Shown: positions 1 to 25,515 of the stretch, piece by piece
Layout of the letters: the number at the start of each line of letters is the position of its first letter
Numbering within the stretch: the first letter of the stretch is position 1
Assembly: GCF_001598255.1 (NCBI RefSeq)
Contig: NZ_BCYP01000033.1
Coordinates: 62,001 to 126,000 of the forward strand
Source of the DNA: Mitsuaria chitosanitabida ATCC BAA-476 = NBRC 102408
Lineage (GTDB): Bacteria > Pseudomonadota > Gammaproteobacteria > Burkholderiales > Burkholderiaceae_C
Direction: 5' to 3'
Length of the DNA stretch: 64,000 nt
The notes under the pieces: model-generated
Told to the model about the DNA's origin: nothing
Seen by the model: only the letters and a program-made list of their open reading frames with translations
The model's database searches: none
Position numbers and translations under genes: made by a program

Positions 1-1142
1 TAGTTGCGCTGCGCGCCCATCAGGTTGACCAGCTCGCCGGTGATGTCGACGTTGGACTGTTCCAGCGCGCCCGCCGACAGCTTGGCCGCCGTGCCCGCGC
101 CGGGGCGCGAGTACAGCGCCACGCCGCTCTCGGCGCTCGTGGTCCAGCTGGTGTCGCTGATGGGCTTGAGGCCCGACTCGTTGGCGAAGGTGGCCAGCGC
201 CAGCGTGCCCACGGTCTGCTTCTGGTTGTTGCTGTAGCTGGCGATCAGCGAGCCGTCCTCCGACAGCGTCGTGCCCGTCAGCGTGCCGGCGGCGTAGCCG
301 TTGGTCTCGTTGGTGCGGGTGGTCGTGTCGCCGGCGAACTGCGTCAGGCCGGTGTAGTCGATGCTCATCGAGATCGGGGCCGCGCCGTTGGTGGGCGTGG
401 CGGTGAGCGTCACGGCCGGCAGCGCCGTCAGCTGGCCCTGCGCGTCGAAGGTCATCGTCGCGCCCACGCCGGTCGGCGCCGCGCCGTCGAAGCTGTAGTA
501 CGCGCTGACCGCGCCCATGCCGGTCTTGACGAAGTACTGGGTGACGCTGTGCTTGGTGCCCAGCGAGTCGTAGACCGTCGAGGTGATCGAGCTGTTGAAG
601 CTGCGCGGATCGTCCTTGTCGAAGGTGGCCACGGCCGGCACGGTCCAGTCGGCGCTGAGGTTGCCGTTGTAGGTCAGCTTGTCGCTGGGCTGGGCCGGGA
701 TCTGGCCGGTGGCCACCTTCAGGTCGCCGAAGGCGCCCAGGCCGCCGCCCTGCACCGGACGGCCGTTGGCGTCCAGCTGCGCGGCGTAGCCCTGCGCCTT
801 GCGGCCCAGGCTGTCGACGACGAAGCCGTCCTTGTCGACGTTGAACAGGCCCACGCGCGTGAAGACGGTCTGGCCCGAGGTGTCGCGCACGGCGAAGAAG
901 CCGCGGCCCTGGATCATCGCGTCCATGCCGCGGCCGGTGTTGAACAGGCCGCCGCCGTTCTCGATGCTCTGCGTGGTCGAGCCCACCTCGACGCCGGTCG
1001 GGTTGTTGCCCGCGTACATGGCGGAGAAGTTGCTGCGGCTGGACTTGTAGCCGTAGGTGCCGGAGTTGGCGATGTTGTTGCTGATGGTCTCCAGGCTGGC
1101 GTTGACCGCGTTGATGCCCGAACGTGCGATTTCGAAACTCAT
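1..1142 (-). CDS. flgE: flagellar hook protein FlgE (3' end outside window)
   Basis: FlgE polymerises into the hook joining rod and filament. The start is the ATG whose complement lies at 1140-1142, preceded by a GGAGG ribosome binding site. The N-terminus reads MSFEIARSGINAVNASLETI, followed by SNNIANSGTYGYK, the rod/hook/HAP signature shared by axial proteins. Near the left edge the sequence reads LEQSNVDITGELVNLM, the conserved C-terminal helix motif, so only about 30 residues are missing. About 380 codons are present, consistent with a hook protein of just over 400 residues. It is last in the visible flgB-C-D-E run, and flgF-L presumably continue to the left, as in lateral flagellar loci. 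Confidence 0.93.
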   Translation of the reverse strand, partial: MSFEIARSGINAVNASLETISNNIANSGTYGYKSSRSNFSAMYAGNNPTGVEVGSTTQSIENGGGLFNTGRGMDAMIQGRGFFAVRDTSGQTVFTRVGLFNVDKDGFVVDSLGRKAQGYAAQLDANGRPVQGGGLGAFGDLKVATGQIPAQPSDKLTYNGNLSADWTVPAVATFDKDDPRSFNSSITSTVYDSLGTKHSVTQYFVKTGMGAVSAYYSFDGAAPTGVGATMTFDAQGQLTALPAVTLTATPTNGAAPISMSIDYTGLTQFAGDTTTRTNETNGYAAGTLTGTTLSEDGSLIASYSNNQKQTVGTLALATFANESGLKPISDTSWTTSAESGVALYSRPGAGTAAKLSAGALEQSNVDITGELVNLMGAQRN

Positions 1143-1210
1143 GGGGGCCTCCGAAGGCGTTGGAATCTGGGAACTGGAAGAACTCGGGGAATCGGGGAAG
1201 CGTCGGTCCG

Positions 1211-1864
1211 TCAGGACGTCGCGCGGCCCTTGAACTGAGTGATGGCCTGGCTGGACACCTCGCCCAGGCCGGCCATCTGCAGCATCACGTTGCCGTCGGC
1301 GGACAGGCGCACGCCGTTCAGGCGGGCGACCGCCTCCACCGCGACCGATCGCTTGTCGCCGGCCTCGAACTTCAGCGTGTACTGGCCGTCGCCCAGGCCC
1401 AGCTTGGCCGGGTCCAGGGTGAAGCGCTGCTCGCCCTTGCCCTGCGCGCCCAGGTCGATGCGCTGCTCCTTGCCGTCGCTGCCGGTGACGACCAGCGTGT
1501 TGGCCGGGCTGCTCGAATCCAGCGTGTAGCGCAGCTCCACGGGCGTGCCCGACAGCTGGACCTGCGACACCGCGGCCTGCAGCGTCGAGCCGACCTGCGC
1601 GCCCAGCGTCATCAGCTGCAGGCTGGCCAGCATGCTGGCGTTGGTCTGGCCCTGCGAGGTCAGCTTCTGCATGGACTCGACCTGGCTGAGCTGCGTGAGC
1701 TGGCTGACGAACTGCGAGGGATCCTGCGGGGACAGCGGATCCTGGTTCTTGATCTGCGCCACCAGCAGCGTGGTGAACAGGTTGCTCAGGCTGCCGTTGG
1801 AGGCGATGTTGTCGGTGCTCGTGCTGCTGCCCGAGCTCGTGTTGTTGTTGACGGTCGTGGTCAT
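1211..1864 (-). CDS. flgD: flagellar hook assembly scaffold FlgD
   Basis: FlgD is the transient cap that promotes hook subunit polymerisation. The 217-residue product has a Ser/Thr/Asn-rich N-terminus, then the typical FlgD core with LLVAQIKNQDPLSPQDPSQF at about 33-52 and a following QLTQLSQVESMQK stretch. The C-terminal half is the beta-rich FLG/tudor-like portion. Length is usual for the family. It lies 31 bp downstream of flgC and 68 bp upstream of flgE on the same strand, so it is part of the flgBCDE transcription unit. Confidence 0.95.
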   Translation of the reverse strand: MTTTVNNNTSSGSSTSTDNIASNGSLSNLFTTLLVAQIKNQDPLSPQDPSQFVSQLTQLSQVESMQKLTSQGQTNASMLASLQLMTLGAQVGSTLQAAVSQVQLSGTPVELRYTLDSSSPANTLVVTGSDGKEQRIDLGAQGKGEQRFTLDPAKLGLGDGQYTLKFEAGDKRSVAVEAVARLNGVRLSADGNVMLQMAGLGEVSSQAITQFKGRATS

Positions 1865-1895
1865 GGCGGGGTCCTCGGCGTTCGCTTCAGGCGTT

Positions 1896-2350: not shown

Positions 2351-2737
2351 TTACTGGCCGGCGATGGCCTTGGCCACGCCCTTGAGCTTCATGTTCACGA
2401 AGGTCAGGCTGGTCTGGAAATCGAGCGCGTTCTGCGCGAAGGCGGCCTGCTCCACGCCCAGCTCGACGGTGTTGCCGTCCTGCGCGGGGTGGTAGGGCAC
2501 GCGGTACAGCGCGTCCTGCGCGCCGGTGTCCAGCGGCAGCTCGCCGTCGAAGCCGTCGCCCGATCCGTCACCGTTTCCGAGGGCGGAGCGCAGCGACGCG
2601 GCAAAATCGATGTCCCGCGCCTGGTATCCCGGCGTGCTGACGTTGGCGATGTTGGAGGCGAGGACCTTGGTCCGCTCCGCGCGCAGACGCAGCGCGTCGT
2701 CATGCACCCCGGCCGCCTTGCTGAAATCGATGCTCAT
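2351..2737 (-). CDS. flgB: proximal rod protein FlgB
   Basis: FlgB is a proximal rod subunit exported by the flagellar type III apparatus. The 128-residue product reads MSIDFSKAAGVHDDALRLRA, then VLASNIANVSTPGYQARDIDF, which contains the axial-protein signature ANVxTPGYxxRDxDF. The C-terminus (ALDFQTSLTFVNMKLKGVAKA) is the expected D0 helix. It heads the flgBCDE unit. The ATG (complement at 2735-2737) overlaps the likely flgA start on the opposite strand, so its promoter must lie in or beyond the flgA 5' coding region. Confidence 0.95.
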   Translation of the reverse strand: MSIDFSKAAGVHDDALRLRAERTKVLASNIANVSTPGYQARDIDFAASLRSALGNGDGSGDGFDGELPLDTGAQDALYRVPYHPAQDGNTVELGVEQAAFAQNALDFQTSLTFVNMKLKGVAKAIAGQ

Positions 2738-3619: not shown

Positions 3620-4429
3620 TCATTTCGACGCTCCCTGCACCCGCGCGGCGACGCGCGCGAGTTTCTCCGCATAGGCCGGATCGGTGGCGTAGCCACCGCG
3701 TTGCAGCGCGGTGCCGTAGGCGCGCGCGTCGCTGCCGACGTTGAGCGCCCCCTGATAGCGCGGGCTCGTGCCGATCAGGCGGGCCAGGTCGTCGAAGGAC
3801 TGGGCCGGCGACGCGTAGGCGCGGAAGGCCTCGCTGCGCGCGACGGGCACGCCCTGCTCGACCTCGGTCGTCATCGCCTGCGCGACGGCGCCGTTCCAGC
3901 CGGTGGCCTTGATGCCGAAGTAGTTGTGGCTGGGCGTGCCGTCCGCCGCGCGCAGGGGCGACTTGCCCCAACCGGTCTCCAGCGCCGCCTGCGCGGTCAG
4001 CACCTCGGGCGCGACGCCCAGCTTGGCGCCGGCCTGGCGCGCCAGCGGCAGCGTCTGGTCGATGAAGGCCTGGCGCTGCTCGTCGCTGACACCGCCGTCG
4101 ACGACGCCGGCACCGCCGACGCCCCCCAGACCCTCGAGACCCAGCCCGTCCACGCCGAACGCGGACATCGCCTGCTGGCGTCCCCAGGCGCCCTCGGGGC
4201 TCAGCGCGGCGCTGCCGCCCACGGCACCGGAGGTGCCGCCGTCGCCTTGCTCGATGTAGCGCACGACCTCGCGATTCAGTTGCTGGAACAGCGCATCGAA
4301 GCGCTCCGCGCCCGCGCCGTTGCCCTGCACCGCGCGGCCATTCGCTCCACCGGCGCCGCTCATGCCGCCCAGCGCGGGGAACTCCCCGGCGCCGCGGCCG
4401 AAGCCGAATTCAGCGCTGCTCATAGACAT
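3620..4429 (-). CDS. flagellum-associated N-acetylglucosaminidase (FlgJ C-terminal-like, GH73)
   Basis: This probably hydrolyses peptidoglycan so the rod can pass the wall. The 269-residue product has a Gly-rich N-terminal 110 residues with no convincing rod-cap domain, then a GH73/FlgJ-type muramidase domain at about 117-265. The catalytic glutamate is E151 in AQAALETGWGKS, followed by NYFGIKATGWNG and a C-terminal YAEKLARVAARV. Canonical FlgJ joins a rod-binding domain to this enzyme; here only the enzyme is recognisable. It is the last gene of the fliE-to-here run and overlaps flgN by 20 bp. No signal peptide is visible, so export through the flagellar apparatus is inferred. It could be called flgJ by automated annotation. 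Confidence 0.8.
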   Translation of the reverse strand: MSMSSAEFGFGRGAGEFPALGGMSGAGGANGRAVQGNGAGAERFDALFQQLNREVVRYIEQGDGGTSGAVGGSAALSPEGAWGRQQAMSAFGVDGLGLEGLGGVGGAGVVDGGVSDEQRQAFIDQTLPLARQAGAKLGVAPEVLTAQAALETGWGKSPLRAADGTPSHNYFGIKATGWNGAVAQAMTTEVEQGVPVARSEAFRAYASPAQSFDDLARLIGTSPRYQGALNVGSDARAYGTALQRGGYATDPAYAEKLARVAARVQGASK

Positions 4430-4943
4430 GCTCCTCGCGGCCCAGCAACTGCTGCATCAGCGCCTGCTGCTCCGAGATCAGCTGCGCGTTGCGCAGGTTC
4501 AGCGCCTTGCATTCGCTCAGCGCCTGGTCGAGCGCGCGACGCAGGGCGGCCAGGGGCGCGGCGCTGGTGTCGGGCAGCTTCTCGATCAGCGTGCGCAGGT
4601 CCGGGCGCGCCTGGCGGCCCAGCAGCGCGACCAGCAGTTCACGGCGGCGCGCGCGCTGCGCGTCGAGCTCGGCGGCCTGCGTCAGGATGGCGGAGGACAG
4701 CTCGCTGATCGCCTCGGCCTGGTGGCTCAGCGCGGCGTGGAACTGGCGCTGCAGCAGCTCGCGCAGCGCGCCGTAGCCCTGCAGGTCCTCGGTCAGGCCG
4801 GCGTGCAGCTGGCGGATCATCTCGGCCGCGCTGCCGATGGCATGCGCGCGCTGGCGAGCGCCATCGGCGGTCAGCGTGGACGCGGCGCCCTGGGTGGCGG
4901 CCTTGGCCTTGCCCGCCTTCGACGCGGTCAGCAGCGCGCTCAC
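4410..4943 (-). CDS. flgN: FlgN-like flagellar export chaperone
   Basis: FlgN-type chaperones escort hook-filament junction proteins FlgK and FlgL to the export gate. The 177-residue product is almost entirely helical, with many Leu/Gln/Arg residues and a segment ELLVALLGRQARPDLRTLIE followed by CKALNLRNAQLISEQQAL, matching the FlgN C-terminal pattern. Identification rests on this pattern and on its place between flgM (4-bp ATGA overlap) and the glucosaminidase gene (20-bp overlap). In lateral flagellar loci flgN and flgM are likewise neighbours. Confidence 0.75.
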   Translation of the reverse strand: MSALLTASKAGKAKAATQGAASTLTADGARQRAHAIGSAAEMIRQLHAGLTEDLQGYGALRELLQRQFHAALSHQAEAISELSSAILTQAAELDAQRARRRELLVALLGRQARPDLRTLIEKLPDTSAAPLAALRRALDQALSECKALNLRNAQLISEQQALMQQLLGREEHVYEQR

Positions 4944-5227
4944 GAGCGGCCTCCATGGAAGCGCTGGATCAACTGCGCCAGACGGTTCGCGTCGAAGCGG
5001 ATCTCGCCCTTGGCCAGCGCGTCGCGCAGCGCGGCGACCTTGGTCTGGTCGACGTCGGGCATCGCGGCCAGGTCGGCCTGCGCGGGCTTGAGCAGATCGG
5101 TCTCCAGCGCGGCGGCCTGCAGCGCGGGGCTGGCGGTGGCGCCGCCCGCGGCGCGATCGATGGACTCCACCTGCGCGGAGGACGCGCCGGTGACGGGATT
5201 CAGCGGGCCGGAGGACGTGATCTTCAT
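4940..5227 (-). CDS. flgM: anti-sigma-28 factor FlgM
   Basis: FlgM binds FliA (sigma-28) and blocks late flagellar transcription until it is exported through the finished hook. The start chosen (complement of cat at 5225-5227) follows an AAGGGTGA ribosome binding site and gives 95 residues beginning MKITSSGPLNPVTG. The C-terminal VAALRDALAKGEIRFDANRL followed by AQLIQRFH is the FlgM sigma-binding helix pattern. It is 37 bp downstream of motB and overlaps flgN. Its sigma target fliA lies in the same gene run, an arrangement in which sigma and anti-sigma would share a transcript. Confidence 0.88.
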   Translation of the reverse strand: MKITSSGPLNPVTGASSAQVESIDRAAGGATASPALQAAALETDLLKPAQADLAAMPDVDQTKVAALRDALAKGEIRFDANRLAQLIQRFHGGRS

Positions 5228-5264: not shown

Positions 5265-6356
5265 TCAACGCGAGGCCGCCGGCACGGCGGGCGGGGCGGC
5301 GGGCCGGTCCGCGACGGCGGACGCGGCGGTCGCGGAGGACGGAGCGACGGTCTTCGCCGGCGCGGTCGCGGGCTTGGCGGTGTTCGGGGTGCCGGACGCG
5401 GCACGGGCCGGCGCCAGCGCGCCGCGGAGCTGCTCGGCCGGATCCGGCGCGGGATCGCGCAGGCCGGCCGGGCCGTACAGCGCGGCGATGGTCTGGGCCT
5501 GCGCGCTGGTCAGCAGCATCAGCTCGATGCGGCGGTTCACCGCGGCGGTCGGATGCAGCACGTCCAGCGGCGCGGCGTCGGCCATGCCGCTGACCTGCAG
5601 CACGCTGGACTCGGGCATGCCGCCGGCCAGCAGCTCATGCCGCGCGGCCATGGCGCGATGGCTGGACAGCGCCCAGTTGGTGAAGGCGCCGGGGCCCTTG
5701 TCCTGGTAGGCGGTCGCGTCGGTGTGACCGACGATGAGCAGCTGGTTGCGGATCTCCGCCAGCAGCGGGCCCAGCTTGCGCAGCAGCGCGCGCAGCGGCG
5801 CGGCCGGCTGCGCGCTGCCGCGCTCGAACATGCCGCTGGCCTCGGTGTCGTGCAGTTGCAGGCGCAGGCCCTGCGGCGTCACCGCCGTGCGCAGATGGCC
5901 TTGCAGGCCCTCCTCCGCGGCCAGGCCGGCGATGCGGCGCGCCAGCGCCTGCAGCTGCTCGGGCGAATCCAGGCTGGGGCGGCCGACGCGCGCGTCGGTC
6001 GAGCCGTGCTGCGGGTCGCCCGCGCTGAGCTCCTCGCTGCGGGCCGGCACCGGGTGGCGCTCGATCATGCTGCCGCGCGAGCCCGCCGCCAGCGAGTTGG
6101 TCAGGCCCTGGCCGTCCTCGATCAGGTTGGCCCCGGCGTTCTGCAGCACGACCTGCATGCGCTCCGAGTTGCGCGAGGCCAGCAGCCACAGCACCAGGAA
6201 CAGGCACAGCAGCGCCAGGCAGAAGTCGGCGAAGGCGACCTTCCAGGCGCCGCCGTGGCCCTCGTCGTCATGACGGCGCGAGGACCGCTTGACGATGGTG
6301 GGGTGGGCGTCGCCGCGGATGGGGCGGCCGCCGCTGGTCGCGAGTTCAGGCTGCAC
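5265..6356 (-). CDS. motB: flagellar motor stator protein MotB (LafU type)
   Basis: MotB anchors the stator to peptidoglycan and provides the ion-binding aspartate. The 363-residue product has one transmembrane helix at about 38-60 (WKVAFADFCLALLCLFLVLW) with D44 as the ion-binding residue. An OmpA-like peptidoglycan-binding domain at about 170-290 includes LLIVGHTDATAYQ and SSHRAMAARHELL. The C-terminal 70 residues are an Ala/Pro-rich tail of unknown role. It overlaps motA by 11 bp. Order fliA-motA-motB equals lafS-lafT-lafU of lateral systems. Proton rather than sodium coupling is likely for this class but is inference. Confidence 0.93.
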   Translation of the reverse strand: MQPELATSGGRPIRGDAHPTIVKRSSRRHDDEGHGGAWKVAFADFCLALLCLFLVLWLLASRNSERMQVVLQNAGANLIEDGQGLTNSLAAGSRGSMIERHPVPARSEELSAGDPQHGSTDARVGRPSLDSPEQLQALARRIAGLAAEEGLQGHLRTAVTPQGLRLQLHDTEASGMFERGSAQPAAPLRALLRKLGPLLAEIRNQLLIVGHTDATAYQDKGPGAFTNWALSSHRAMAARHELLAGGMPESSVLQVSGMADAAPLDVLHPTAAVNRRIELMLLTSAQAQTIAALYGPAGLRDPAPDPAEQLRGALAPARAASGTPNTAKPATAPAKTVAPSSATAASAVADRPAAPPAVPAASR

Positions 6357-7266
6357 GACGCTCCCCTTGATCGCCCGGACGGCGGCGCGTGCCGGCGTCG
6401 TCGCCGTTGCCGTTCAGCGCGTCGATCCAGCCCTCCAGCTGCGCGAAGCTGGGCTTGATGTTGAGCTGCACCAGGCGGCGGCCCGCGTCGATGGCCAGCA
6501 GCGGCGGCTTGCCCGCCACGTGCGTGACCAGCACGACCTTGACCGACTCCAGCGAGGCGAGCTCCGCGTGCACCAGCTGCTTCATCATGTTGGACAGCGG
6601 GTCCATCACGCCGTAGCAGAAGAAGATGCCGATGAAGGTACCGACCATCGCGGCCGCGACCATCACCGCGATCTCGCCGGTGCCCGCGCCCTCGGCGACG
6701 TGGTTCATCGCCATCACGATGCCCAGCACCGCGGCCAGGATGCCGAAGCCCGGCATCGCCTCGGCGATCTTGTGCAGCGACTTGGACGGCTGCATCAGCT
6801 CGTCGTGGATGGCCTCGAGCTCCTGCTCCAGCACGCCCTCGAGCTCATGCGCGTTGATCTTGCCCATCGCCATCAGGCGGAAGTTGTCGACGATGAAGTG
6901 CAGCAGCTTGCTGTTCTGCAGGATCAGCGGATAGCGCTGGAACAGCGGGCTCTCGTGCGGCGCCTCGACGTGCGCGTCCAGGGCCTTCAGGCCGCCCGCC
7001 GCGGCCTGCAGCAGCTCGTACATCAGCAGCAGCAGCTGGCGCTGGAACTCCTGGCCGTGGCTGTTGCGGCGCACCAGCTTGCGCAGCTGCAGCAGCATCT
7101 CCGACAGCACGTGGCCCGGGTTGCCCAGCACGATGGCGCCCACGGCGGCGCCCACGATGATCAGCAGCTCCACCGGCTGCCAGATCACCTTGAACGAGCC
7201 GCCATGGATCATGAAGCCGCCGAAGACGCAGCCCAGCACGATGAGGATTCCGACGAGAGGTTGCAT
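6346..7266 (-). CDS. motA: flagellar motor stator protein MotA (LafT type)
   Basis: MotA forms the stator ion channel with MotB and contacts FliG. The 306-residue product has four transmembrane segments, two near the N-terminus (LVGILIVLGCVFGGFMIHGG and WQPVELLIIVGAAVGAIVLG) and two at about 165-215 (MPGFGILAAVLGIVMAMNHV, then VAAAMVGTFIGIFFCYGVMD). The large cytoplasmic loop between helices 2 and 3 carries the family pattern around RYPLILQNSKLLHFIVDNFR. Size is typical. It follows fliA by 16 bp. Confidence 0.95.
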   Translation of the reverse strand: MQPLVGILIVLGCVFGGFMIHGGSFKVIWQPVELLIIVGAAVGAIVLGNPGHVLSEMLLQLRKLVRRNSHGQEFQRQLLLLMYELLQAAAGGLKALDAHVEAPHESPLFQRYPLILQNSKLLHFIVDNFRLMAMGKINAHELEGVLEQELEAIHDELMQPSKSLHKIAEAMPGFGILAAVLGIVMAMNHVAEGAGTGEIAVMVAAAMVGTFIGIFFCYGVMDPLSNMMKQLVHAELASLESVKVVLVTHVAGKPPLLAIDAGRRLVQLNIKPSFAQLEGWIDALNGNGDDAGTRRRPGDQGERRAA

Positions 7267-17795: not shown

Positions 17796-18926
17796 TCCTG
17801 GGCTCCCGAGCGTTGGCCGGCACGACTCGGGTTTTCCCGATCTGTCGTCCCGGCGACTGTTTCAGACTTCTCTGACCGATGCATCGGCGGCCCCTCCCAT
17901 TACCTCAGGTTAATGGCTCAGAACCAGCCGTCATTTCATGAATCCCCTGATTCAGAAGATTCGATGAGAACCTCAATGTCGCCGCTTAATTTGACGCGCA
18001 TTCGTTGCGCGTATTTTCTCCGCGACATATTCGACGGTATTTACAGACAGTTTCAACCACCGATATTCAGGCGAAGCGAATCCCTCGCGCCGAGTTTTCA
18101 TAAACTCGGTAGCGATACCAACGCGACGACAACGCGTGAATGTCGGAAACCCCCTGGAGCGCCGCGGCTGCGCAGCCGCGCGGAACTCCAGGCGCCGCCA
18201 GGATCAGGCGGCACCGATGCGGGTCAGGGGGTGAAAAGCTGTCGGCGAATGACCATGTCCGTCCTCTCTGATGCAAGTGGCTTGCAGGGGCGGGCATCAC
18301 CTCGGCGGGAGCCGAGCAGGTCACAACAGGCCCGGGTGGGGCCTGGCAGGCGAGTGCCTAGGAACCGCGCGTCACGCAGCCCACAGACTCAGGTCTGGCA
18401 ACCCCGCTATCGTGATCCGGCGCTCCTTCATGAAGCGCGTCGGATGGTAGACCGGAGGCTTTGCGACCCCGACTTTCGTTCGGGTGTGCCCTGATGTGTC
18501 GGACTGTAGACGGTGTGTTCGTCCGCAACAAGAACCAATTGTGCACTGCGTCAAGGCAGGTTTCAGCGCCGTGAAGAAGTTCACGGTACGCGACACGAAA
18601 CCTCCGCCGGACCGGACGCTGTGCGCCCGATCTGTATCGGTATTGATAAAGATGAAAAATAAAATACCTGCGGCTTGCCGGGATATGACGACGCGCCACT
18701 TCGGGGACTTAAATCGCTTTCCTGGTGCGCGTGCGATTCGCGACTCGTTGTTTGTGATTTATTCCTCCGACCGCTAACGTACACGTTTCCAATGCTGGTC
18801 TAAATCGCCATCGATTCCTAGAATTCGCGGGTTATGGCTGATTTCCTCATGACATTTGGATGACCTGCATCCGGAGCGTCGCCGGAAACGGCCCGACCCA
18901 CCCGATCACCCCTCACCGGATCCACG
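17796..18926. other. 1.1-kb non-coding divergent control region between fliE and fliM
   Basis: No convincing gene is seen. Parts (about 17900-18060 and 18480-18870) are clearly more AT-rich than the surrounding genes. The region contains a long hairpin at 18154-18191 and must hold promoters for the two divergent flagellar operons. In known lateral systems a LafK-type sigma-54 activator gene lies next to fliE; none is found here. No site with good sigma-54 (GG-N10-GC) or sigma-28 spacing could be pinned down by eye. Short reading frames here (for example 18484-18777) have no coding character. Confidence 0.6.
18154..18191. repeat. long inverted repeat / hairpin
   Basis: Outer arms CTGGAG (18154-18159) and CTCCAG (18186-18191) flank a perfect 18-bp palindrome CGCGGCTGCGCAGCCGCG at 18163-18180. 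It could form a 38-nt hairpin in RNA or be a protein-binding palindrome. No T-run follows, so a classical intrinsic terminator is unlikely. Confidence 0.6.
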
Positions 18927-19994
18927 ATGACCCCATCGTCCCGCCCCACCCCGCCCGCCCGGCCTGTCGCGCTCGACACGCGCACCCTGGGTCGGCCGGT
19001 GCATCTGCTGCCCCAGGTCGCGCTGCGCCTGCGCGAGGCGCTGCAGCGCGCGCTGGTCCAGCCGTGGAACCGCCGCTATCACAGCCGCTATGAACTGCAG
19101 GCGCTGACGCTGCGGCCCTTCGCCGCCGGCCAGGACGCCGCGGCCCTCGCGCCGTCGGGCGTGGCACCGCGCTGGCTGCGGGCCAACGGTCCCGCCGGCC
19201 CGCTGGCCTGCCGCATCGACCGGCCGCTGGTGCTGGGGCTGATGGCGCGCCGCCTGGGCCTGGGCGCCGACACGGCCCTGGCCACCGCCGACACGCCGCC
19301 CACCGCCACCGAGGACCGCCTGCTGCACCTGCTGGCCGGCCAGTTCGCGGGTCTGAGCCTGCAATGGCTGGCGCTGGCCGCGCGTCCCGAGGACGAGGCC
19401 GAGCAAGACCTGACCCCGCTGGTCGACCTGCCGGCGCTGCAATCCGGTCCGCTGCCCACGCTGAACGACGCCTGGACGCTGACGGTGGCCATGCGCGACA
19501 TGACGCCCGCCCTGCCCCCGGCGATGCCGGCGAACGCCTCCTTCAAGCCGGAGCCCGCCGCGGCCGAGCCGGAGGCCGATGGCGCCTACGAACAGGCCGA
19601 TCCCGCCGCGACGCCGTCCGGCCCGGTCACGGCCGACGCGTCGACCGCCGCGCCGGTGGCGTCGCCCGCGCAAGACATGACTCTCAGCCTGATCCTGGAC
19701 GGCGCCTACCTGCAGCCCCTGCTGCGCCGCCTGTCCGAGCAGCACCGCCCGGCGCGGTCCGGCTCGGCGGTGGGCGCGCCCCCGCTGACGCGCCGACTGA
19801 CGCTGACGCTGCAGGCGCGGCTGCTGGAGCGCGAGCTGGACCTGGGATCCGTGCTCGACCTGGCGCCGGGCGCGCTGATCCCGATCCGACTGGCCGACGC
19901 GACCGTGATGGTCGAGGGCTCGGCGCTGATGAGCGCGGCCGTGGCCGAGCACCAGGGCAAGTTGTGCCTGACCTCTTTCCAAGACCTGGAGTGA
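18927..19994 (+). CDS. fliM: divergent flagellar motor switch protein FliM (lateral type)
   Basis: FliM is a C-ring component. The 355-residue product begins MTPSSRPTPPARPVALDTRT and lacks the N-terminal CheY-P-binding motif (consensus LSQxEIDALL) seen in chemotactic FliM. The middle region (about 40-170) is only weakly FliM/CheC-like without a clear GGxG motif, a Pro/Ala-rich linker spans about 190-255, and a SpoA (FliM/FliN C-terminal) domain occupies about 285-350 (LLERELDLGSVLDLAPGALI, then PIRLADATVMVEGSALM). It heads fliM-N-P-Q-R-flhB-flhA, the gene order of lateral flagellar export operons. A FliM/HrcQ-like label is possible, but context favours FliM. Confidence 0.78.
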   Translation: MTPSSRPTPPARPVALDTRTLGRPVHLLPQVALRLREALQRALVQPWNRRYHSRYELQALTLRPFAAGQDAAALAPSGVAPRWLRANGPAGPLACRIDRPLVLGLMARRLGLGADTALATADTPPTATEDRLLHLLAGQFAGLSLQWLALAARPEDEAEQDLTPLVDLPALQSGPLPTLNDAWTLTVAMRDMTPALPPAMPANASFKPEPAAAEPEADGAYEQADPAATPSGPVTADASTAAPVASPAQDMTLSLILDGAYLQPLLRRLSEQHRPARSGSAVGAPPLTRRLTLTLQARLLERELDLGSVLDLAPGALIPIRLADATVMVEGSALMSAAVAEHQGKLCLTSFQDLE

Positions 19995-19997
19995 TTG

Positions 19998-20339
19998 ATG
20001 ATGAGCGATACCGATCTGATCGCGGGCCTGCTGGATGAACCGGTGCAGGACGTTCCGGTGATCGAGCCCAAGCCGGCCGGCCGCGACCTGCCCGCGCTGA
20101 TGCGCAAGATCCCCGTGACGCTGACGCTGGAGGTCGGCGAGGCGCGTCTGTCGCTGCACGACCTGGCGCAGCTGCAGGCCGACAGCGTCGTCGAGCTGGA
20201 CACCCTGGCCGGCGCGCCGCTGATCATCAAGGTCAACGGCACGCCCATCGGCCATGCGGAGGTCGTGGTGAGCGGCGACAGCCACGCGCTGCGCGTGCTG
20301 GACATCGACGGCCTGGACCTGGACCGGCTGGGCTCATGA
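19998..20339 (+). CDS. fliN: flagellar motor switch protein FliN
   Basis: FliN is the C-ring SpoA-domain protein. From the ATG at 19998 (a second ATG follows at 20001) the product has 113 residues, with the SpoA domain at about 38-112: LMRKIPVTLTLEVGEARLSL, then LQADSVVELDTLAGAPLIIK and VNGTPIGHAEVVVSGDSHAL. It starts 3 bp after fliM and overlaps fliP by 4 bp. Confidence 0.92.
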   Translation: MMSDTDLIAGLLDEPVQDVPVIEPKPAGRDLPALMRKIPVTLTLEVGEARLSLHDLAQLQADSVVELDTLAGAPLIIKVNGTPIGHAEVVVSGDSHALRVLDIDGLDLDRLGS

Positions 20340-21169
20340 GGTCCCGGATCGCCGCCACGCGCCCTGACGAGGCGGATCCGCGCGTCGCGCGGGCGCGCGC
20401 TCGCCCGAGCGCGCTGCCGGGGCGCGCCTTGACGCGCGTCGCGGCATTCGCGCTCCCGGCGTTGCTGGCCGTGGCCACCGGCCCGGCCCAGGCGGCGATC
20501 CGCATCGCCGGCGCCGGCGCGGGCGGCGGCGACTTCACGCTCAAGACGCAGGTCCTGGTCATCATGACCCTGCTCGGGCTGCTGCCCGTGCTGGTGCTCA
20601 TGATGACGAGCTTCACCCGCTTCGTGATCGTGCTCTCCCTGCTGCGCCAGGCGCTGGGCCTGCAGCAGGGCCTGCCCAACCGGCTGGTGACCGGCGTCGC
20701 CCTGATCCTGACCATCCTGGTGATGAAGCCCATCGGGACGCAGATCTGGGAGCAGGCCATGCAGCCCTACGACAACGACAAGATCACGCTGGTGCAGGCG
20801 CTGCAGATCGCGGAGAAGCCGATCTCGCGCTTCATGCTGGCGCAGACCAGCAAGAGCGCGCTGGCGCAGATCGCGCAGCTGGCCGGTGAGACGAACGTGG
20901 CCAAGCCCGAGGAGCACAGCTTCCCGGTGAAGCTGGCGGCCTTCACGCTGTCGGAGCTCAAGACCGCGTTCCAGATCGGCTGCATGCTGTTCATCCCCTT
21001 CCTGGTGATCGACCTGGTGGTGTCCTCGGTGCTGATGGCGATGGGCATGATGATGCTGTCGCCGCTGGTGATCTCGCTCCCCCTGAAGCTGCTGCTGTTC
21101 GTGCTGGTCGACGGCTGGACGCTGACCGTCAACACCCTGATCTCCAGCGTGCGCGGGGTGGCGGGATGA
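20336..21169 (+). CDS. fliP: flagellar export gate protein FliP
   Basis: FliP forms the core of the export gate with FliQ and FliR. The 277-residue product has a long basic N-terminus and a cleavable-type signal (VAAFALPALLAVATGPAQAA). The family core follows: VLVLMMTSFTRFVIVLSLLR, QALGLQQGLPNRLVTGVALI and a C-terminal AFQIGCMLFIPFLVIDLVVS, then MAMGMMMLSPLVISLPLKLL. It overlaps fliN and fliQ by 4 bp each. No fliO gene precedes it, as in lateral systems. Confidence 0.97.
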   Translation: MRSRIAATRPDEADPRVARARARPSALPGRALTRVAAFALPALLAVATGPAQAAIRIAGAGAGGGDFTLKTQVLVIMTLLGLLPVLVLMMTSFTRFVIVLSLLRQALGLQQGLPNRLVTGVALILTILVMKPIGTQIWEQAMQPYDNDKITLVQALQIAEKPISRFMLAQTSKSALAQIAQLAGETNVAKPEEHSFPVKLAAFTLSELKTAFQIGCMLFIPFLVIDLVVSSVLMAMGMMMLSPLVISLPLKLLLFVLVDGWTLTVNTLISSVRGVAG

Positions 21170-21435
21170 CGCCGGAGATCGCCACCGACCTGATCGGCGA
21201 GAGCCTGCACCTGACCATGCTGCTGGTGCTGGTGCTGATCCTCCCCGGGCTGGTGGTGGGCCTGCTGGTCGCGCTGTTCCAGGCGGCGACGCAGATCAAC
21301 GAGCAGACGCTGGCCTTCCTCCCCCGCCTGATGGTGACGCTGCTGGTGCTGGGCATCGCGGGCCGCTGGATGGTGGGCCTGCTGATGGACTTCTGCGTCT
21401 CGATCTTCGAGCGCGCGGCGCAGCTCGTCACCTAG
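21166..21435 (+). CDS. fliQ: flagellar export gate protein FliQ
   Basis: FliQ is a small two-helix gate subunit. The 89-residue product has transmembrane segments at about 16-38 (LTMLLVLVLILPGLVVGLLV) and 50-75, with the conserved FQAATQINEQTLAFLPRL between them. It overlaps fliP by 4 bp and ends 9 bp before fliR. Confidence 0.96.
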   Translation: MTPEIATDLIGESLHLTMLLVLVLILPGLVVGLLVALFQAATQINEQTLAFLPRLMVTLLVLGIAGRWMVGLLMDFCVSIFERAAQLVT

Positions 21436-21444
21436 GGCCGCATC

Positions 21445-22245
21445 GTGGAGATCGACTTCAGCCAGCTGACGCTGTGGCTCAGCGCGCTGTGGTGGCCCTT
21501 CTGCCGCGTCGTGGCGATGCTGTCGGCGGCCCCCACCATCGGCGACGCCGGCATGCCGGTGTCCGCGCGCGTGCTGCTGTCGCTGGTGCTGGCCGTGGTG
21601 CTGATGCCGGTCTCGCAGTCGACGGCGCTGCACATCGACATCTTCTCGATGCAGGGCGTGCTGGCCGCGGCCGAGCAGGCCGTGCTGGGCCTGGCCATGG
21701 GCCTGACCTTCCACCTGGCGATGGCCGTCATCGGCGTGCTGGGCTTCCTGCTGTCCTCGCAGCTGGGCCTGGCGATGGCGGTGCTGAACGATCCGATCAA
21801 CGGCAGCTCCTCCGACGTGGTGGGCGCGCTGCTGAACGTGCTGTGCGTGCTGGCCTTCTTCTCGATGGACGGCCATCTGCTGTTCACCGCCGTGCTCGGC
21901 GAGAGCTTCCGCGCCTGGCCCATCGGCGCGGGACTGTCCCTGCTCACGCTGCAGAACCTGGTCTACAACCTCGCCTGGGTCTTCTCCGCCGCGCTGCTGC
22001 TGGCGCTGCCCGTGGTGGCCGCGACGCTGGTGGTGCAGCTGGGCATGGGCTTCCTCAACCGCGTGGCCCCGGCGCTGAACCTGTTCTCGCTGGGCTACTC
22101 GCTGGTGACGCTGTTCGGGCTGTTCATGCTCACGCAGGTGCTGGCGCACGTGCCGGAGCACTACCTGCGCATGACGCAGCAGCTGCTGCGCACGCTGGAG
22201 CAAGGCATGCGCGGCGTGCCCGGACCGGGAGGCGCGCATGGCTGA
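21445..22245 (+). CDS. fliR: flagellar export gate protein FliR
   Basis: FliR is a multi-pass export gate subunit. The start is a GTG at 21445; the 266-residue product reads MEIDFSQLTLWLSALWWPFC, then RVVAMLSAAPTIGDAGMPVS, the FliR N-terminal pattern. Six or so hydrophobic helices follow, including GLAMGLTFHLAMAVIGVLGF and FLNRVAPALNLFSLGYSLVT. It lies 9 bp after fliQ and overlaps flhB by 8 bp. Confidence 0.95.
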   Translation: MEIDFSQLTLWLSALWWPFCRVVAMLSAAPTIGDAGMPVSARVLLSLVLAVVLMPVSQSTALHIDIFSMQGVLAAAEQAVLGLAMGLTFHLAMAVIGVLGFLLSSQLGLAMAVLNDPINGSSSDVVGALLNVLCVLAFFSMDGHLLFTAVLGESFRAWPIGAGLSLLTLQNLVYNLAWVFSAALLLALPVVAATLVVQLGMGFLNRVAPALNLFSLGYSLVTLFGLFMLTQVLAHVPEHYLRMTQQLLRTLEQGMRGVPGPGGAHG

Positions 22246-23386
22246 GTCCGACAGCGCCGACAAGACCGAGAAGCCGTCAGAGCAGAAGCTGCGCAAGGCC
22301 CGCGAGCAGGGCCAGGTCGCGCGCAGCAAGGACATCGGCGCGGCGATCGGGCTCTTCGCGGGCCTGAAGCTGCTGACCCTGATCGCGCCCATGTACCTCG
22401 AGGACTTCGGGCGGCTGTTCCGGCTGGCGCTCGCGCCGATGGACGGTCCCGACGCGCTGGCCGGCCTGGACGGACTGTGGGGCGAGGCGGCGCTGGCTTC
22501 CCTGTGGCTGCTGGCCAAGCTGCTGATGCCGCTGCTGGCGCTGCCGGCGGCGGTGATCGTCGCGACGCAGCTGGGCGGCGGCCTCGTGTTCACGACCAGC
22601 CTGTGGGCGCCCAAGTTCTCGCGCCTGAACCCGATGTCCAACCTGGGCCGCTTCTTCACGACCAAGCATTACAGCGAGCTCGCCGCGACGCTGCTCAAGA
22701 CGGGCGGCGTGCTGGTCGTGCTCTATTGGGTGACGACGAGCTTCGCCGCGCAGTACGTGCAGCTGCAGGCCATGAGCCTGCCCGACGCGCTGTCGCAGGC
22801 CGCGGCGCTGGTGATGGACGCGCTGCTGACGCTGGCCGCGGTGCTGATGGCCTATGCGCTGGTGGACGTGCCGCTGCAGCGCCTGCTCTTCCTGCGCCAG
22901 CAGCGCATGAGCAAGCAGGAAGTCAAGGAAGAGCACAAGCAGAACGAAGGCCGTCCCGAGGTCCGCCAGCGCATCCGGCAGCTGCAGCAGCAGCTGGCCA
23001 GGCGCAGCGTGCGCAAGGCCGTGCCCGAGGCGGACGTGGTCATCGTCAACCCCGAGCACTACGCCGTCGCGCTGCGCTACGACAGCCACAAGGCCGAGGC
23101 GCCCTACGTCGTCGCCAAGGGCGTGGACGAGATGGCGATGTACATCCGGTCGCTCGCGCGCGAGCACCGCGTGCAGCTGCTGGAGCTGCCGCCGCTGGCG
23201 CGCGCGCTCTACAACACCTCGCAGGTGCAGCAGCAGATTCCCGCCTCGCTGTACCAGGCGGTGGCGCAGGTGCTGAGCTACGTCATGCAGCTGAAGGCCT
23301 TCCAGGCCGGCCGTCGTCCGACTGAACCGAGCCTGGCGGCCGACCTGCCGGTGCCGCGACATCTCTCCGATCCGGAGTCCCCATGA
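22238..23386 (+). CDS. flhB: flagellar export switch protein FlhB
   Basis: FlhB sets substrate specificity of the export apparatus through autocleavage between Asn and Pro. The 382-residue product starts with the conserved DKTEKPSEQKLRKAREQGQV, has four membrane helices, and a cytoplasmic domain with MSKQEVKEEHKQNEGRPEVR. The cleavage motif is NPEH (residues 271-274, bases 23048-23059) in place of the usual NPTH; Asn, Pro and His are retained. It overlaps fliR by 8 bp and flhA by 4 bp. Confidence 0.96.
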   Translation: MAESDSADKTEKPSEQKLRKAREQGQVARSKDIGAAIGLFAGLKLLTLIAPMYLEDFGRLFRLALAPMDGPDALAGLDGLWGEAALASLWLLAKLLMPLLALPAAVIVATQLGGGLVFTTSLWAPKFSRLNPMSNLGRFFTTKHYSELAATLLKTGGVLVVLYWVTTSFAAQYVQLQAMSLPDALSQAAALVMDALLTLAAVLMAYALVDVPLQRLLFLRQQRMSKQEVKEEHKQNEGRPEVRQRIRQLQQQLARRSVRKAVPEADVVIVNPEHYAVALRYDSHKAEAPYVVAKGVDEMAMYIRSLAREHRVQLLELPPLARALYNTSQVQQQIPASLYQAVAQVLSYVMQLKAFQAGRRPTEPSLAADLPVPRHLSDPESP

Positions 23387-25515
23387 AGACCAAGACCCCT
23401 TCCCCGTCGACCGCGTCCGCCTCCGGGCTCGCGCGCCTGGGCGCGCAGCTGCGCGACCTGCGCGTGGCGGCGCCGCTGTTCCTGCTGGCGATCCTGGCGA
23501 TGGTGATCCTGCCGCTGCCGCCGGTGCTGCTGGACGTGCTGTTCACCTTCAACATCGTGCTGGCGCTGGTGGTGATCCTGGTCAGCGTGAACAGCAAGCG
23601 GCCGCTGGACTTCTCGATCTTCCCCAGCGTGATCCTGGCGACGACGCTGATGCGGCTGTCGCTGAACGTTGCGTCGACGCGGGTGGTGCTGCTGCACGGC
23701 CATGAGGGGACGCATGCCGCGGGCAAAGTGATCGAGGCCTTCGGCAACGTGGTCATCGGCGGCAACTTCATCGTCGGCCTGGTGGTCTTCGTGATCCTGA
23801 TGGTGGTGAACTTCATCGTCGTCACCAAGGGCGCGGAGCGGATCTCCGAGGTCTCGGCGCGCTTCACGCTGGACGCGCTGCCCGGCAAGCAGATGGCCAT
23901 CGACGCCGACCTGAACGCCGGCCTGATCAACCAGGAGCAGGCGCAGAAGCGGCGGCAGGAGGTCGGCACCGAGGCCGACTTCTACGGCGCGATGGACGGC
24001 GCGAGCAAGTTCGTGCGCGGCGACGCGATCGCGTCCATCCTGATCCTGATCATCAACCTGGTGGGCGGTGTCGCGATCGGCGCCTTCATGCACGGCGTGA
24101 GCCTGGGCGAGGCCATCCGCCAGTACGGCCTGCTGACCATCGGCGACGGCCTGGTCGCGCAGATCCCGGCGCTGCTGCTGTCGGCCGCCGCGGCCATCAT
24201 CGTGACGCGGGTCAGCGACTCGGGCGAGTTCGAGCAGCAGGTCAGCGAGCAGATGCTGGCCTCGCCGCAGGTGCTGTACAGCGCGGCCGGCGTGATGCTG
24301 GTGCTGGCGCTGATCCCCGGCATGCCGTGGATGGCCTTCAGCGCCTTCGCGGTGGCGCTGGCCTACGCGGCCTGGCGCATGGGCGATCGCGCGCGGGACC
24401 GCGTCAAGCCCGCCGACCCGATCGAGGGCGCGATCCTCGCGGCCACGCCGCCGGAGATCGACTGGCGCGCGCTGCCCGTGGTGGAGGCGGTGTCGGTGAC
24501 GCTGGGCTACAAGCTGGTGGGCCTGATCGACCCGGCGCAGGGCGAGCCGCTGCGCACGCGGGTGCGCGGCATGCGGCAGTCGATGAGCGAGACGCTGGGC
24601 GTGCTGCTGCCGACGCTGTCGGTGCGGGACGATCTGTCGCTCAAGCCGAACCAGTACTCGATCTCGCTGAGCGGCGCGATCGTGGCGCAGGCCGAGGTCT
24701 ATCCCGATCGCCTGATGGCGATCGCCTCGGGTCAGGTCTGGGGCGACCTGGACGGCATCCCGGGCTTCGATCCCGCCTACGCGATGCCGGTGACCTGGAT
24801 CGAGACCGAGCACAAGGCGCACGCGCTGGGCCTGGGCTACCAGGTGGTGGACGTGGCGAGCGTGGTCGCGACGCACGTGTCCAAGGTGCTGCGCGAGCAG
24901 TTGCCGGAGCTGCTGAAGTTCGACGACGTCTCGGCGCTGCTGGAGCGGCTGAACGCGATCGCGCCCAAGCTGGGCGGCGCGCTGGACAAGGCCTTCACGC
25001 ATGCGCAGCTGCTGAAGGTGATGCGGCTGCTGCTGACCGAGAACGTCGCGGTGAAGGACATCCAGACCATCGCGTCGACGCTGGTGGAGAACGCCGAGGC
25101 GACCAAGGATCCGGTGCTGCTGGCCGCCGAGGTGCGCTGCGCGCTGAAGCGGCAGATCGTGGCGCAGCTGCAGGGGCCGCAGGGAGCCCTGGGCGCGCTG
25201 AAGGTGTTCAACCTCGGGAGCGAGCTGGAGAACCATCTGCTGAATGCGCTGAATCAGGCGCGCGCGGGTGGGGCGAAGGTGCAGCTGGACAGCTACCCGG
25301 TGGATCCGCAGCTGCTGTCGCAGCTGCAGCAGCACATGCCGGGCGCGCGGGATCAGATGAAGTCGCTGGGGACCGCGCCGGCGCTGCTGGTCATGCCGCA
25401 GGTGCGGCCGCTGCTGGCGCGCTACGCGCGGCTCTTCGCGCCGGGGCTTTCGGTGCTCTCGTACAACGAGGTGCCGGATCAGAAGGAGATCGCGGTCGTG
25501 GGGACTCTGGGCTAA
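23383..25515 (+). CDS. flhA: flagellar export gate protein FlhA
   Basis: FlhA is the export gate with a large cytosolic ring that docks chaperone-substrate complexes. The 710-residue product has about eight N-terminal membrane helices and the FHIPEP family core LRLSLNVASTRVVLLHG, then VVTKGAERISEVSARFTLDA and LPGKQMAIDADLNAGLINQE. The C-terminal half is the soluble nonameric domain. Length is normal. It is the last gene of the fliMNPQR-flhBA operon. Downstream repeats at 25533-25673 may act in termination. Confidence 0.97.
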   Translation: MKTKTPSPSTASASGLARLGAQLRDLRVAAPLFLLAILAMVILPLPPVLLDVLFTFNIVLALVVILVSVNSKRPLDFSIFPSVILATTLMRLSLNVASTRVVLLHGHEGTHAAGKVIEAFGNVVIGGNFIVGLVVFVILMVVNFIVVTKGAERISEVSARFTLDALPGKQMAIDADLNAGLINQEQAQKRRQEVGTEADFYGAMDGASKFVRGDAIASILILIINLVGGVAIGAFMHGVSLGEAIRQYGLLTIGDGLVAQIPALLLSAAAAIIVTRVSDSGEFEQQVSEQMLASPQVLYSAAGVMLVLALIPGMPWMAFSAFAVALAYAAWRMGDRARDRVKPADPIEGAILAATPPEIDWRALPVVEAVSVTLGYKLVGLIDPAQGEPLRTRVRGMRQSMSETLGVLLPTLSVRDDLSLKPNQYSISLSGAIVAQAEVYPDRLMAIASGQVWGDLDGIPGFDPAYAMPVTWIETEHKAHALGLGYQVVDVASVVATHVSKVLREQLPELLKFDDVSALLERLNAIAPKLGGALDKAFTHAQLLKVMRLLLTENVAVKDIQTIASTLVENAEATKDPVLLAAEVRCALKRQIVAQLQGPQGALGALKVFNLGSELENHLLNALNQARAGGAKVQLDSYPVDPQLLSQLQQHMPGARDQMKSLGTAPALLVMPQVRPLLARYARLFAPGLSVLSYNEVPDQKEIAVVGTLG

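What the first reader, a model, noticed from the sequence alone, without database searches (positions are those of the whole stretch)
1..25515. A lateral (Laf/Flag-2)-type flagellar locus in a probable betaproteobacterium
The order fliD-S-T-K-L-fliA-motA-motB is the laf B-C-D-E-F-S-T-U order. fliMNPQR-flhBA without fliO, a dedicated sigma-28, dedicated stators and a LafA-like flagellin also match lateral systems known from Vibrio, Aeromonas and E. coli Flag-2. In most Burkholderiales the primary flagellar genes are arranged otherwise (flgM/flgN near flgA, fliOPQR, motAB elsewhere). This suggests a complete second, transferable flagellar system.
Basis: partly seen in the sequence, partly recalled or inferred. 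Interest (0 to 1): 0.7.

Follow-up and report, generated by a model that had tools for sequence, protein, structure and literature searches.

The report
Second flagellum behind c-di-GMP riboswitch
A Roseateles bacterium carries a second flagellum of the "lateral" kind used for moving over surfaces, and where other bacteria keep the switch protein for it, this one has an RNA sensor for the signal molecule cyclic di-GMP, so the choice between crawling and settling may be wired directly into the messenger RNA.

Summary
The window carries most of a second, intact flagellar gene set of the lateral (Laf/Flag-2) lineage, in a Roseateles genome. flgE-L continue left of the window; the lateral-type flagellin lies at 35029-36006, outside the stated range. 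A primary set, with FlhC and a CheY-binding FliM, lies on another contig. FlhA and FliF trees place the window proteins with E. coli Flag-2 and Vibrio lateral proteins.
The kind is known: B. dolosa has a described system, and that paper names a Roseateles LafA homologue. What looks new is the control region. The fliE-fliM gap, which holds lafK in 8 of 8 gammaproteobacterial lateral loci, has none here. It holds a c-di-GMP-I riboswitch (18394-18500, minus; 60 bits, cut-off 35) leading the fliE operon. The riboswitch is there in 22 of 24 lateral loci read in this family, 0 of 3 other betaproteobacterial and 0 of 8 gammaproteobacterial loci. In 19 of 22 a covarying hairpin with tail UUGUGRCC, complementary to the aptamer's 5' strand, follows. 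Best model: c-di-GMP switches the lateral flagellum off in the mRNA leader. Ligand, target and direction are inferred. "Transferable" was not shown.

The parts
1..1142 (-). flgE, 3' end runs left of the window (402 aa in all)
   Evidence: gene model; no family scan
1211..1864 (-). flgD
   Evidence: Pfam FlgD 62 bits
1896..2321 (-). flgC
   Evidence: place, and 74% identity to E. coli Flag-2 FlgC
2351..2737 (-). flgB
   Evidence: Flg_bb_rod 32.2 bits
2676..3518 (+). flgA (start uncertain, divergent from flgB)
   Evidence: translation; 27% hit between flgB and flgM of E. coli Flag-2
3620..4429 (-). FlgJ-type muramidase as a separate gene
   Evidence: Glucosaminidase 110.9 bits
4410..4943 (-). 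flgN
   Evidence: place and translation; 27% hit overlapping E. coli Flag-2 flgN
4940..5227 (-). flgM (anti-sigma-28)
   Evidence: translation, place
5265..6356 (-). motB/lafU
   Evidence: best NCBIfam model is LafU (195.7 bits, below its cut-off of 383)
6346..7266 (-). motA/lafT
   Evidence: TIGR03818 350.5 bits, above cut-off
7283..7996 (-). fliA/lafS sigma-28
   Evidence: TIGR02479 221.9 bits, above cut-off
8009..8500 (-). fliL
   Evidence: 25.2 bits, cut-off 24.6
8497..9924 (-). fliK (start uncertain)
   Evidence: Flg_hook 54.9 bits
9810..10133 (-). fliT
   Evidence: just under cut-off
10147..10533 (-). fliS
   Evidence: 116.6 bits
10559..11989 (-). fliD (start uncertain)
   Evidence: FliD_C 154 bits
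12025..12525 (-). fliJ
   Evidence: 31.3 bits
12531..13850 (-). fliI ATPase
13847..14824 (-). fliH (start uncertain, model overlaps fliG)
14599..15636 (-). fliG
15620..17440 (-). fliF MS ring
   Evidence: tree
17460..17795 (-). fliE, first gene of the operon
17796..18926 (.). control region between divergent fliE and fliM; the place of lafK in gammaproteobacterial lateral loci, without lafK here
18319..18326 (-). tail TTGTGACC, complementary to the aptamer 5' strand
18327..18345 (-). covarying 7-bp hairpin of the proposed expression platform
18394..18500 (-). c-di-GMP-I (GEMM-I) riboswitch aptamer, RF01051
   Evidence: 60 bits, cut-off 35, E 3e-9
18503..18508 (-). -10-like element TACAGT
18526..18531 (-). 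-35-like element TTGTTG, 17-nt spacer
18571..18584 (.). CRP-like palindrome GTGA-N6-TCAC at fixed distance from the promoter
18927..19994 (+). fliM, lateral type, no N-terminal CheY-binding motif
19995..20339 (+). fliN
20336..21169 (+). fliP
21166..21435 (+). fliQ
   Evidence: place; 55% to E. coli Flag-2
21445..22245 (+). fliR
   Evidence: place; 38% to E. coli Flag-2
22238..23386 (+). flhB
   Evidence: just under the equivalog cut-off
23383..25515 (+). flhA
   Evidence: tree
33174..33794 (-). PAS-domain protein next to the lateral flagellin
   Evidence: also in G002, G009 and G013
33843..35075 (-). second FliK-like protein next to the lateral flagellin
   Evidence: Flg_hook 20.5 bits, cut-off 29.8
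35029..36006 (-). lateral-type flagellin (lafA); true start probably about 33 codons in
   Evidence: best NCBIfam model LafA_2, 334.7 bits against a cut-off of 365; close relatives in 9 of 15 congeners

Best explanation
The locus encodes a second flagellum of the lateral (Laf/Flag-2) lineage with its own export gate, basal body, hook, sigma-28, anti-sigma, stators and flagellin, beside a separate primary flagellum that has FlhC. Its early operon (fliEFGHIJ, and probably fliDSTKL-fliA-motAB behind it) is transcribed from a promoter just upstream of a c-di-GMP-I riboswitch that sits where gammaproteobacterial relatives keep the LafK activator gene. At low c-di-GMP the UGUGRCC tail of a downstream hairpin pairs with the aptamer's 5' strand (GGGCACA) and transcription runs through. 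At high c-di-GMP the aptamer closes on its ligand, frees the tail, and the hairpin stops transcription, so the lateral flagellum is not made in biofilm conditions. Shown by sequence: gene set, lineage, riboswitch family match, its place and conservation, hairpin covariation. Inferred: ligand, promoter, that it acts on fliE, the off direction and termination.
For: Second set: FlhA and FliF each occur twice, and there are six flagellin/FlgL-type matches. The other set is on C34; FlhC, CheZ, a CheY-type receiver, MotA, FlhB, an FlhF-type GTPase and a sigma-28-type factor were scanned, and its FliM begins with LSQDEVDALL a few residues in. Lineage: FlhA tree, 117 rows, lateral clade of 24 with SH-aLRT 100 (quick method, no bootstrap); FliF tree, 41 rows, 100/100. 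FlhA is 59% identical to E. coli Flag-2 and 58% to V. campbellii lateral, 44-46% to its own primary FlhA. lafK: in 8 of 8 gammaproteobacterial lateral loci, in 0 of 27 betaproteobacterial loci whose fliE-fliM slot was read. Riboswitch; in 9 of 9 Roseateles lateral loci whose slot is held and 13 of 15 further family loci; 0 of 8 gammaproteobacterial, 0 of 3 other betaproteobacterial. The genome shows only two such riboswitches in 5.8 Mb. Expression platform: hairpin of 7-9 bp in 19 of 22, 16 different stems, each followed by TTGTGRCC. Aptamer variant GGCACAC, complementary to that tail: 9 of 9 Roseateles lateral aptamers, 0 of 21 other Roseateles GEMM-I examined (TGTGACC within 250 nt downstream: 9 of 9 and 1 of 21). 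With two aptamer-core pairs forced, or the tail helix forced, the folds differ by a mean of 1.6 kcal/mol, range -1.8 to 4.4. Precedent: in C. difficile a class-I riboswitch stops the flgB flagellar operon when c-di-GMP binds (PMC6200980, passages).
Against: No expression or binding data. The hairpin tail is not a U-run, and the consensus scan found no terminator on the riboswitch strand and no consensus promoter there. The tail helix is nearly invariant, so covariation neither supports nor refutes it. 3 of 22 loci (G062, G117, G221) have the aptamer without the hairpin-tail motif, and 2 of 24 family loci have no riboswitch. G013, a tenth Roseateles with lateral FlhA and flagellin, shows neither a lateral FliF nor a lateral-type riboswitch in its assembly; its contig ends within fliM. 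About 600 nt between aptamer and fliE are poorly conserved and unexplained. In 12 of 19 leaders the unconstrained minimum-energy fold is lower than both forced folds. A LafK-like activator working from elsewhere is not excluded: 11 sigma-54-activator matches, the best 44% over 309 residues and one 53% over 217. Other GEMM-I of the genus mostly lie before secreted-protein or transporter-like genes (my reading of translations), where an on-switch would be as likely.
Confidence: 0.68

Rival explanations
1. Same locus and riboswitch, but the riboswitch is an on-switch: raised c-di-GMP on surfaces turns the lateral flagellum on.
For: The tail is not a classical terminator tail. Lateral flagella are surface organelles, and c-di-GMP rises on surfaces (general knowledge).
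Against: In vibrios c-di-GMP and swarming are inversely related (general knowledge). The C. difficile flagellar class-I riboswitch is off. The aptamer fold competes with the tail helix next to the hairpin.
Confidence: 0.25
2. An ordinary lateral system in which the riboswitch matters little: the operon is governed by FlhDC, a CRP-type regulator, a sigma-54 activator encoded elsewhere and LafS, and the aptamer is a remnant or serves a separate short RNA.
For: A CRP-like site at a fixed distance from the promoter in 11 of 22 loci, and also upstream of 5 of 21 other Roseateles GEMM-I. A long unexplained leader. G108 and G213 have a two-component system in the slot and no riboswitch. Eleven sigma-54-activator matches in the genome.
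Against: The aptamer core is near-invariant in 22 loci while the flanking leader has drifted, and downstream hairpin stems covary, so selection acts on it.
Confidence: 0.15
3. The locus is a primary betaproteobacterial flagellum with an unusual order.
For: None beyond shared gene content.
Against: Trees and a separate primary set.
Confidence: 0.01
4. The locus is a decaying or transferred island without function.
For: Patchy presence: 9 of 15 other Roseateles; 18 of 299 family genomes. Flanks mostly differ between subclades. G013 lacks a lateral FliF in its assembly. Three of the nine congeners' flagellin matches contain a TGA, probably upstream of the true start; not examined.
Against: No internal stops in the window's gene models. 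dN/dS 0.105-0.403 in 14 of 14 comparisons of 7 genes. Lateral flagellin and lateral FlhA co-occur in the same 9 of 15 congeners.
Confidence: 0.05

Closest known systems
Flag-2 of Enterobacterales (De Maayer 2020, PMC6993521: abstract and section 6 read)
   Same: fliMNPQR-flhBA and divergent fliEFGHIJ; flgNM/A-L; fliD-S-T, sigma-28, motAB; Enterobacterales FlhA is sister to the betaproteobacterial lateral FlhA in the tree, SH-aLRT 83
   Different: No lafK in the locus. fliDSTKL-fliA-motAB sits between fliJ and flgM, not in the cluster with lafWZA. Flagellin detached. A c-di-GMP-I riboswitch leads fliE.
Vibrio lateral system (V. campbellii L047, Vibrio sp. HA2012 L057)
   Same: Same order of the fliD-S-K-sigma28-motA-motB block and of the two export/basal-body blocks
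   Different: Vibrio has lafK and a further gene between fliE and fliM, and no GEMM riboswitch in the stretches read.
Putative lateral flagella of Burkholderia dolosa (PMC5773237: passages and sections 17 and 22 read)
   Same: Betaproteobacterial lateral system without fliO or its own FlhDC; the paper names a LafA homologue in Roseateles (printed 'Roseatales')
   Different: Three separate regions there, one near-continuous cluster here. The word lafK does not occur in that paper's main text, and the sections read do not speak of a riboswitch.
Cdi-1-3 class-I c-di-GMP riboswitch before the C. difficile flgB operon (PMC6200980, passages)
   Same: Same aptamer class, long leader, leads an early flagellar operon
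   Different: Primary flagellum of a Firmicute; common descent of the two arrangements was not tested and is unlikely.

Membership tests
Lateral (Laf/Flag-2) flagellar lineage | Export and basal-body proteins group with known lateral proteins | tested here: met
   FlhA SH-aLRT 100, FliF 100/100; FliI by identity only
Lateral (Laf/Flag-2) flagellar lineage | Second set in a genome with a separate primary set | tested here: met
Lateral (Laf/Flag-2) flagellar lineage | Dedicated sigma-28 and stators in fliD-S-T-K-L-fliA-motAB order | tested here: met
Lateral (Laf/Flag-2) flagellar lineage | Lateral-type flagellin LafA | tested here: inconclusive
   Best model LafA_2 but 334.7 bits under a cut-off of 365
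Flag-2 sensu stricto (39 conserved proteins) | LafK between lfiM and lfiE | tested here: not met
   elsewhere in the genome 11 sigma-54-activator matches, none clearly orthologous
Lateral (Laf/Flag-2) flagellar lineage | Filaments on the cell side, swarming | not testable with these tools
   needs microscopy
c-di-GMP-I riboswitch (RF01051) | Score above Rfam's gathering threshold, full-length match | tested here: met
   60 bits against 35, positions 1-87 of 87
c-di-GMP-I riboswitch (RF01051) | Binds c-di-GMP and controls the downstream gene | not testable with these tools
   in-line probing and reporters needed

The most novel reading that the evidence does not exclude
The fliE-fliM gap of lateral flagellar loci is an exchangeable regulatory slot: LafK in gammaproteobacteria, a two-component system in one genus of this family, and in most of this family's lateral loci a c-di-GMP-sensing mRNA leader that replaces the protein master regulator, so that the cell's second flagellum is gated directly by the second messenger.
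Probability: 0.47. Interest if true: 0.72.

Novelty: new variant of a known kind. Interest (0 to 1): 0.56.

Why it matters
Lateral flagella and c-di-GMP both bear on the step from swimming to surface life, but in the studied vibrios the link runs through layers of proteins (general knowledge). Here the sensor appears to sit in the leader of the early lateral operon, so one RNA assay would test it. Over the 35 loci whose slot was read, 8 have lafK, 22 the riboswitch, 5 neither and none both. That would be a clear case of a protein master regulator exchanged for a riboswitch while the machine it controls stayed the same.

Tried and rejected
Primary-flagellum reading: rejected by trees and the second set. 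LafK elsewhere in the genome: sixteen matches, 11 of them activators and 5 receiver domains only; none clearly orthologous, none excluded. Sigma-54 and sigma-28 pattern scans of the fliE-fliM gap gave only scattered weak matches. A scan for the flagellin start failed with my pattern in 9 of 9 loci and gave nothing. Intrinsic terminator by consensus scan: none on the riboswitch strand. Covariation support for the tail helix: not available. A first regex look at 30 riboswitches missed 14, so it was redone by coordinates. Papers: ten searches. Judged from titles and abstract starts of what was listed (1 of 1, 12 of 12, 1 of 1, 15 of 924, 5 of 5, 10 of 15), none reports a riboswitch on a lateral flagellar operon; that does not prove it is not in print. 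Loss against transfer was not settled: no species tree was compared, and mobile elements were not searched for.
Full report
What is there. The window is C33:62001-126000 of a 5.82-Mb, 56-contig genome. The genus is Roseateles: relative G001's contig C2 has the length (644016) of R. terrae NZ_JACHXO010000002.1, which holds the same match. Family scans, translation and tblastn give a divergent pair of blocks. On the minus strand from 17795 leftwards: fliEFGHIJ-DSTKL-fliA-motAB-flgM-flgN-muramidase-flgBCDE, continuing outside the window to flgL at C33:55469 and a 381-aa protein without Pfam or NCBIfam match at C33:54223. That protein has 24-25% hits in Vibrio sp. HA2012 (L057, beside flgL) and V. 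hepatarius (L060), so I read it as LafW-like by place. On the plus strand from 18927: fliMNPQR-flhB-flhA. A lateral-type flagellin with a FliK-like and a PAS protein lies at 33174-36006.

Second set and lineage. FlhA and FliF each occur twice. tblastn places flgB-C-D-E-F-G-H-I-K, a muramidase, fliD, fliS, fliF, fliG, fliI, fliN-P-Q-R, flhB, flhA, fliA, motA and motB on contig C34, and three flagellins and one FlgL-like match lie there. FlhC, CheZ, a CheY-type receiver, MotA, FlhB, an FlhF-type GTPase and a sigma-28-type factor were confirmed by Pfam; FlhD was not scanned. FliM with LSQDEVDALL, and a short membrane protein in the fliO place, were read from translations. In a 117-row FlhA tree (quick method, no bootstrap; one duplicate row dropped) the window protein lies in a lateral clade of 24 rows (SH-aLRT 100) with E. 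coli Flag-2 and Vibrio lateral FlhA. The betaproteobacterial members form one subclade of 16 (100). The lateral clade sits among gammaproteobacterial rows in the midpoint-rooted drawing, and the genome's other FlhA sits with same-family primaries. The two deep outgroups have long branches and their place is unsure. A 41-row FliF tree, whose primaries are relatives plus E. coli K-12, splits lateral from primary at 100/100. FliI is 65% identical to E. coli Flag-2, 60% to V. campbellii lateral and 53% to its own primary. The window FliM lacks the CheY-binding motif (motif recalled), as do E. coli Flag-2 and V. campbellii lateral FliM; that this makes it CheY-blind is inference.

Distribution. Of 15 other Roseateles genomes, 9 have lateral FlhA (86-92% identity), and the same 9 have the lateral flagellin (71-93%). 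In 3 of these 9 the flagellin match contains a TGA, probably upstream of the true start; this was not examined. G013, one of the 9, has no lateral FliF match and no lateral-type riboswitch in its assembly, and its flhA contig ends within fliM: a gap or a real loss. In a sample of 299 family genomes, 18 have lateral FlhA at E <= 1e-190 (12 of 141 genera). Genes right of the cluster are shared by the window, G002 and, as far as their contigs reach, G009 and G013. In the other carriers' stretches only the flagellin, the FliK-like gene (G006), one gene in G015 and a 38% match in G012 were found. No left-flank gene matched in the carriers, but the stretches reach only a few kb to that side. No tRNA is in the window.

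The control region. Gammaproteobacterial lateral loci carry lafK between fliE and fliM: 8 of 8, E. coli, Enterobacter, Rosenbergiella, three Vibrio, Endozoicomonas, Stutzerimonas (three of them supplied the queries). None of 27 betaproteobacterial loci with a readable slot does: 9 Roseateles, 15 other family loci, Chromobacterium, Massilia, Pandoraea. G013 and the Rhodoferax locus L053 end inside the block and were not counted. In the window the slot holds 1.13 kb in which I recognise no gene. Elsewhere in the genome 11 sigma-54 activators match LafK, none clearly an orthologue, so a LafK acting from afar is not excluded. Aligning nine Roseateles showed a block far more conserved than its surroundings. 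Rfam names it c-di-GMP-I riboswitch, 18394-18500 minus, 60 bits against a cut-off of 35, the only Rfam hit in the window.

How general. The riboswitch stands in the fliE leader on fliE's strand in 9 of 9 Roseateles loci whose slot is held and 13 of 15 further family loci. Counted inside the 299-genome sample it is 16 of the 18 lateral carriers. In G155 the contig breaks near fliM, but a fliM piece, the riboswitch, fliE and fliF are on one contig. The two exceptions, G108 and G213 (one genus), have instead a histidine kinase and a response regulator in the slot (read from translations; no family scan). It is absent from Chromobacterium, Massilia and Pandoraea and from 8 gammaproteobacterial lateral loci. 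The own genome's only other match is on C30, so none is on the primary contig C34. Methylibium L052 and G075 are the same contig, and L051 and G001 the same genome; each was counted once.

Anatomy of the leader. A -10-like TACAGT stands directly before the aptamer in 18 of 22 loci. In 8 of 9 Roseateles a TTGTTG lies 17 nt further up. A GTGA-N6-TCAC palindrome, CRP-like by recall, stands at the same distance within 1 nt in 11 of 22 (9 Roseateles, G022, G212), and somewhere in the 130 nt upstream of 5 of 21 other Roseateles GEMM-I. Behind the aptamer 19 of 22 loci have a 7-9-bp hairpin in 16 different sequences, directly followed by TTGTGRCC (at random places in the same leaders 9.6% reach 7 bp, a control that includes the hairpins themselves). 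The consensus fold pairs that tail with the aptamer's GGGCACA. Rfam's consensus and 21 of 21 other Roseateles GEMM-I examined, of 23 found, lack the ACA form. 9 of 9 Roseateles lateral aptamers have it, and all 22 family aptamers were retrieved with a pattern containing it. TGTGACC downstream was also found in 1 of the 21 others. Aptamer core and tail helix exclude each other by position. Forced folds (two core pairs, or six tail pairs) differ by 1.6 kcal/mol on average, the tail form being lower in 16 of 19, while in 12 of 19 the free fold is lower than both. This is what a ligand-driven switch needs, but it is not proof.

Mechanism. Shown: gene set, lineage, selection, aptamer, place, hairpin. 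Inferred: c-di-GMP as the ligand (family membership), promoter, control of the fliE operon (place and strand), off direction (C. difficile precedent, PMC6200980 passages; general knowledge of vibrios), stop at the hairpin. I put about 0.95 on the lateral lineage, 0.95 on a real riboswitch, 0.85 on control of fliE and 0.65 on off. On checking, the odds of the boldest reading went from 0.50 to 0.47, for the unexcluded distant LafK and for G013.

What is known. Lateral systems in betaproteobacteria are in print: B. dolosa (PMC5773237, passages and sections 17 and 22), which names a Roseateles LafA homologue and suggests regulators shared with the polar system. Frequent lack of FliO in lateral operons is in print (PMC12248157, passages). 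Flag-2 architecture including lafK: PMC6993521, abstract and section 6. A class-I c-di-GMP riboswitch on a flagellar operon is known in C. difficile. The combination found here did not appear in the listings, which cover open-licence papers only and of which 75 and 96 were seen in part. Hence: new variant of a known kind.

Noticed in passing
27237-33005: Genes for dihydrodipicolinate-synthase-like, aldehyde dehydrogenase, MFS transporter and galactarate/altronate dehydratase proteins lie between flhA and the lateral flagellin. G009 and G013 share all four; G002 shares only the dehydratase.
   Followed up: partly
35029-36006: In five congeners with the lateral cluster (G001, G003, G008, G012, G015) the lateral flagellin is not beside it but far away or on another contig.
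   Followed up: partly
L280 and L281, between fliM and fliE: Two genomes of one genus carry a histidine kinase and a response regulator in the slot where others have lafK or the riboswitch.
   Followed up: partly
L246 (G000:C30:180261-180362): The genome's only other c-di-GMP-I riboswitch, near a contig end; congeners have GEMM-I mostly before secreted-protein or transporter-like genes, 5 of 21 with a CRP-like site upstream.
   Followed up: partly
3620-4429: The muramidase half of FlgJ is a separate gene next to flgN, while the rod half (137 aa) stays between flgI and flgK at C33:57853.
   Followed up: no
L003:12223-13368: A 381-aa protein after flgL with no Pfam or NCBIfam match, with weak (24-25%) matches in two Vibrio lateral loci; perhaps LafW.
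   Followed up: partly
G001-G015: 15 of 15 congeners have at least one further FlhA/SctV paralogue at 32-48% identity, likely injectisomes or relatives of them; the window's genome shows none beyond its two FlhA.
   Followed up: no
G013: Carries lateral FlhA and flagellin but no lateral FliF match in its assembly.
   Followed up: no
40616-41596: CsgG-type protein on the minus strand; a gene at this place matches one in G002 and G015.
   Followed up: no
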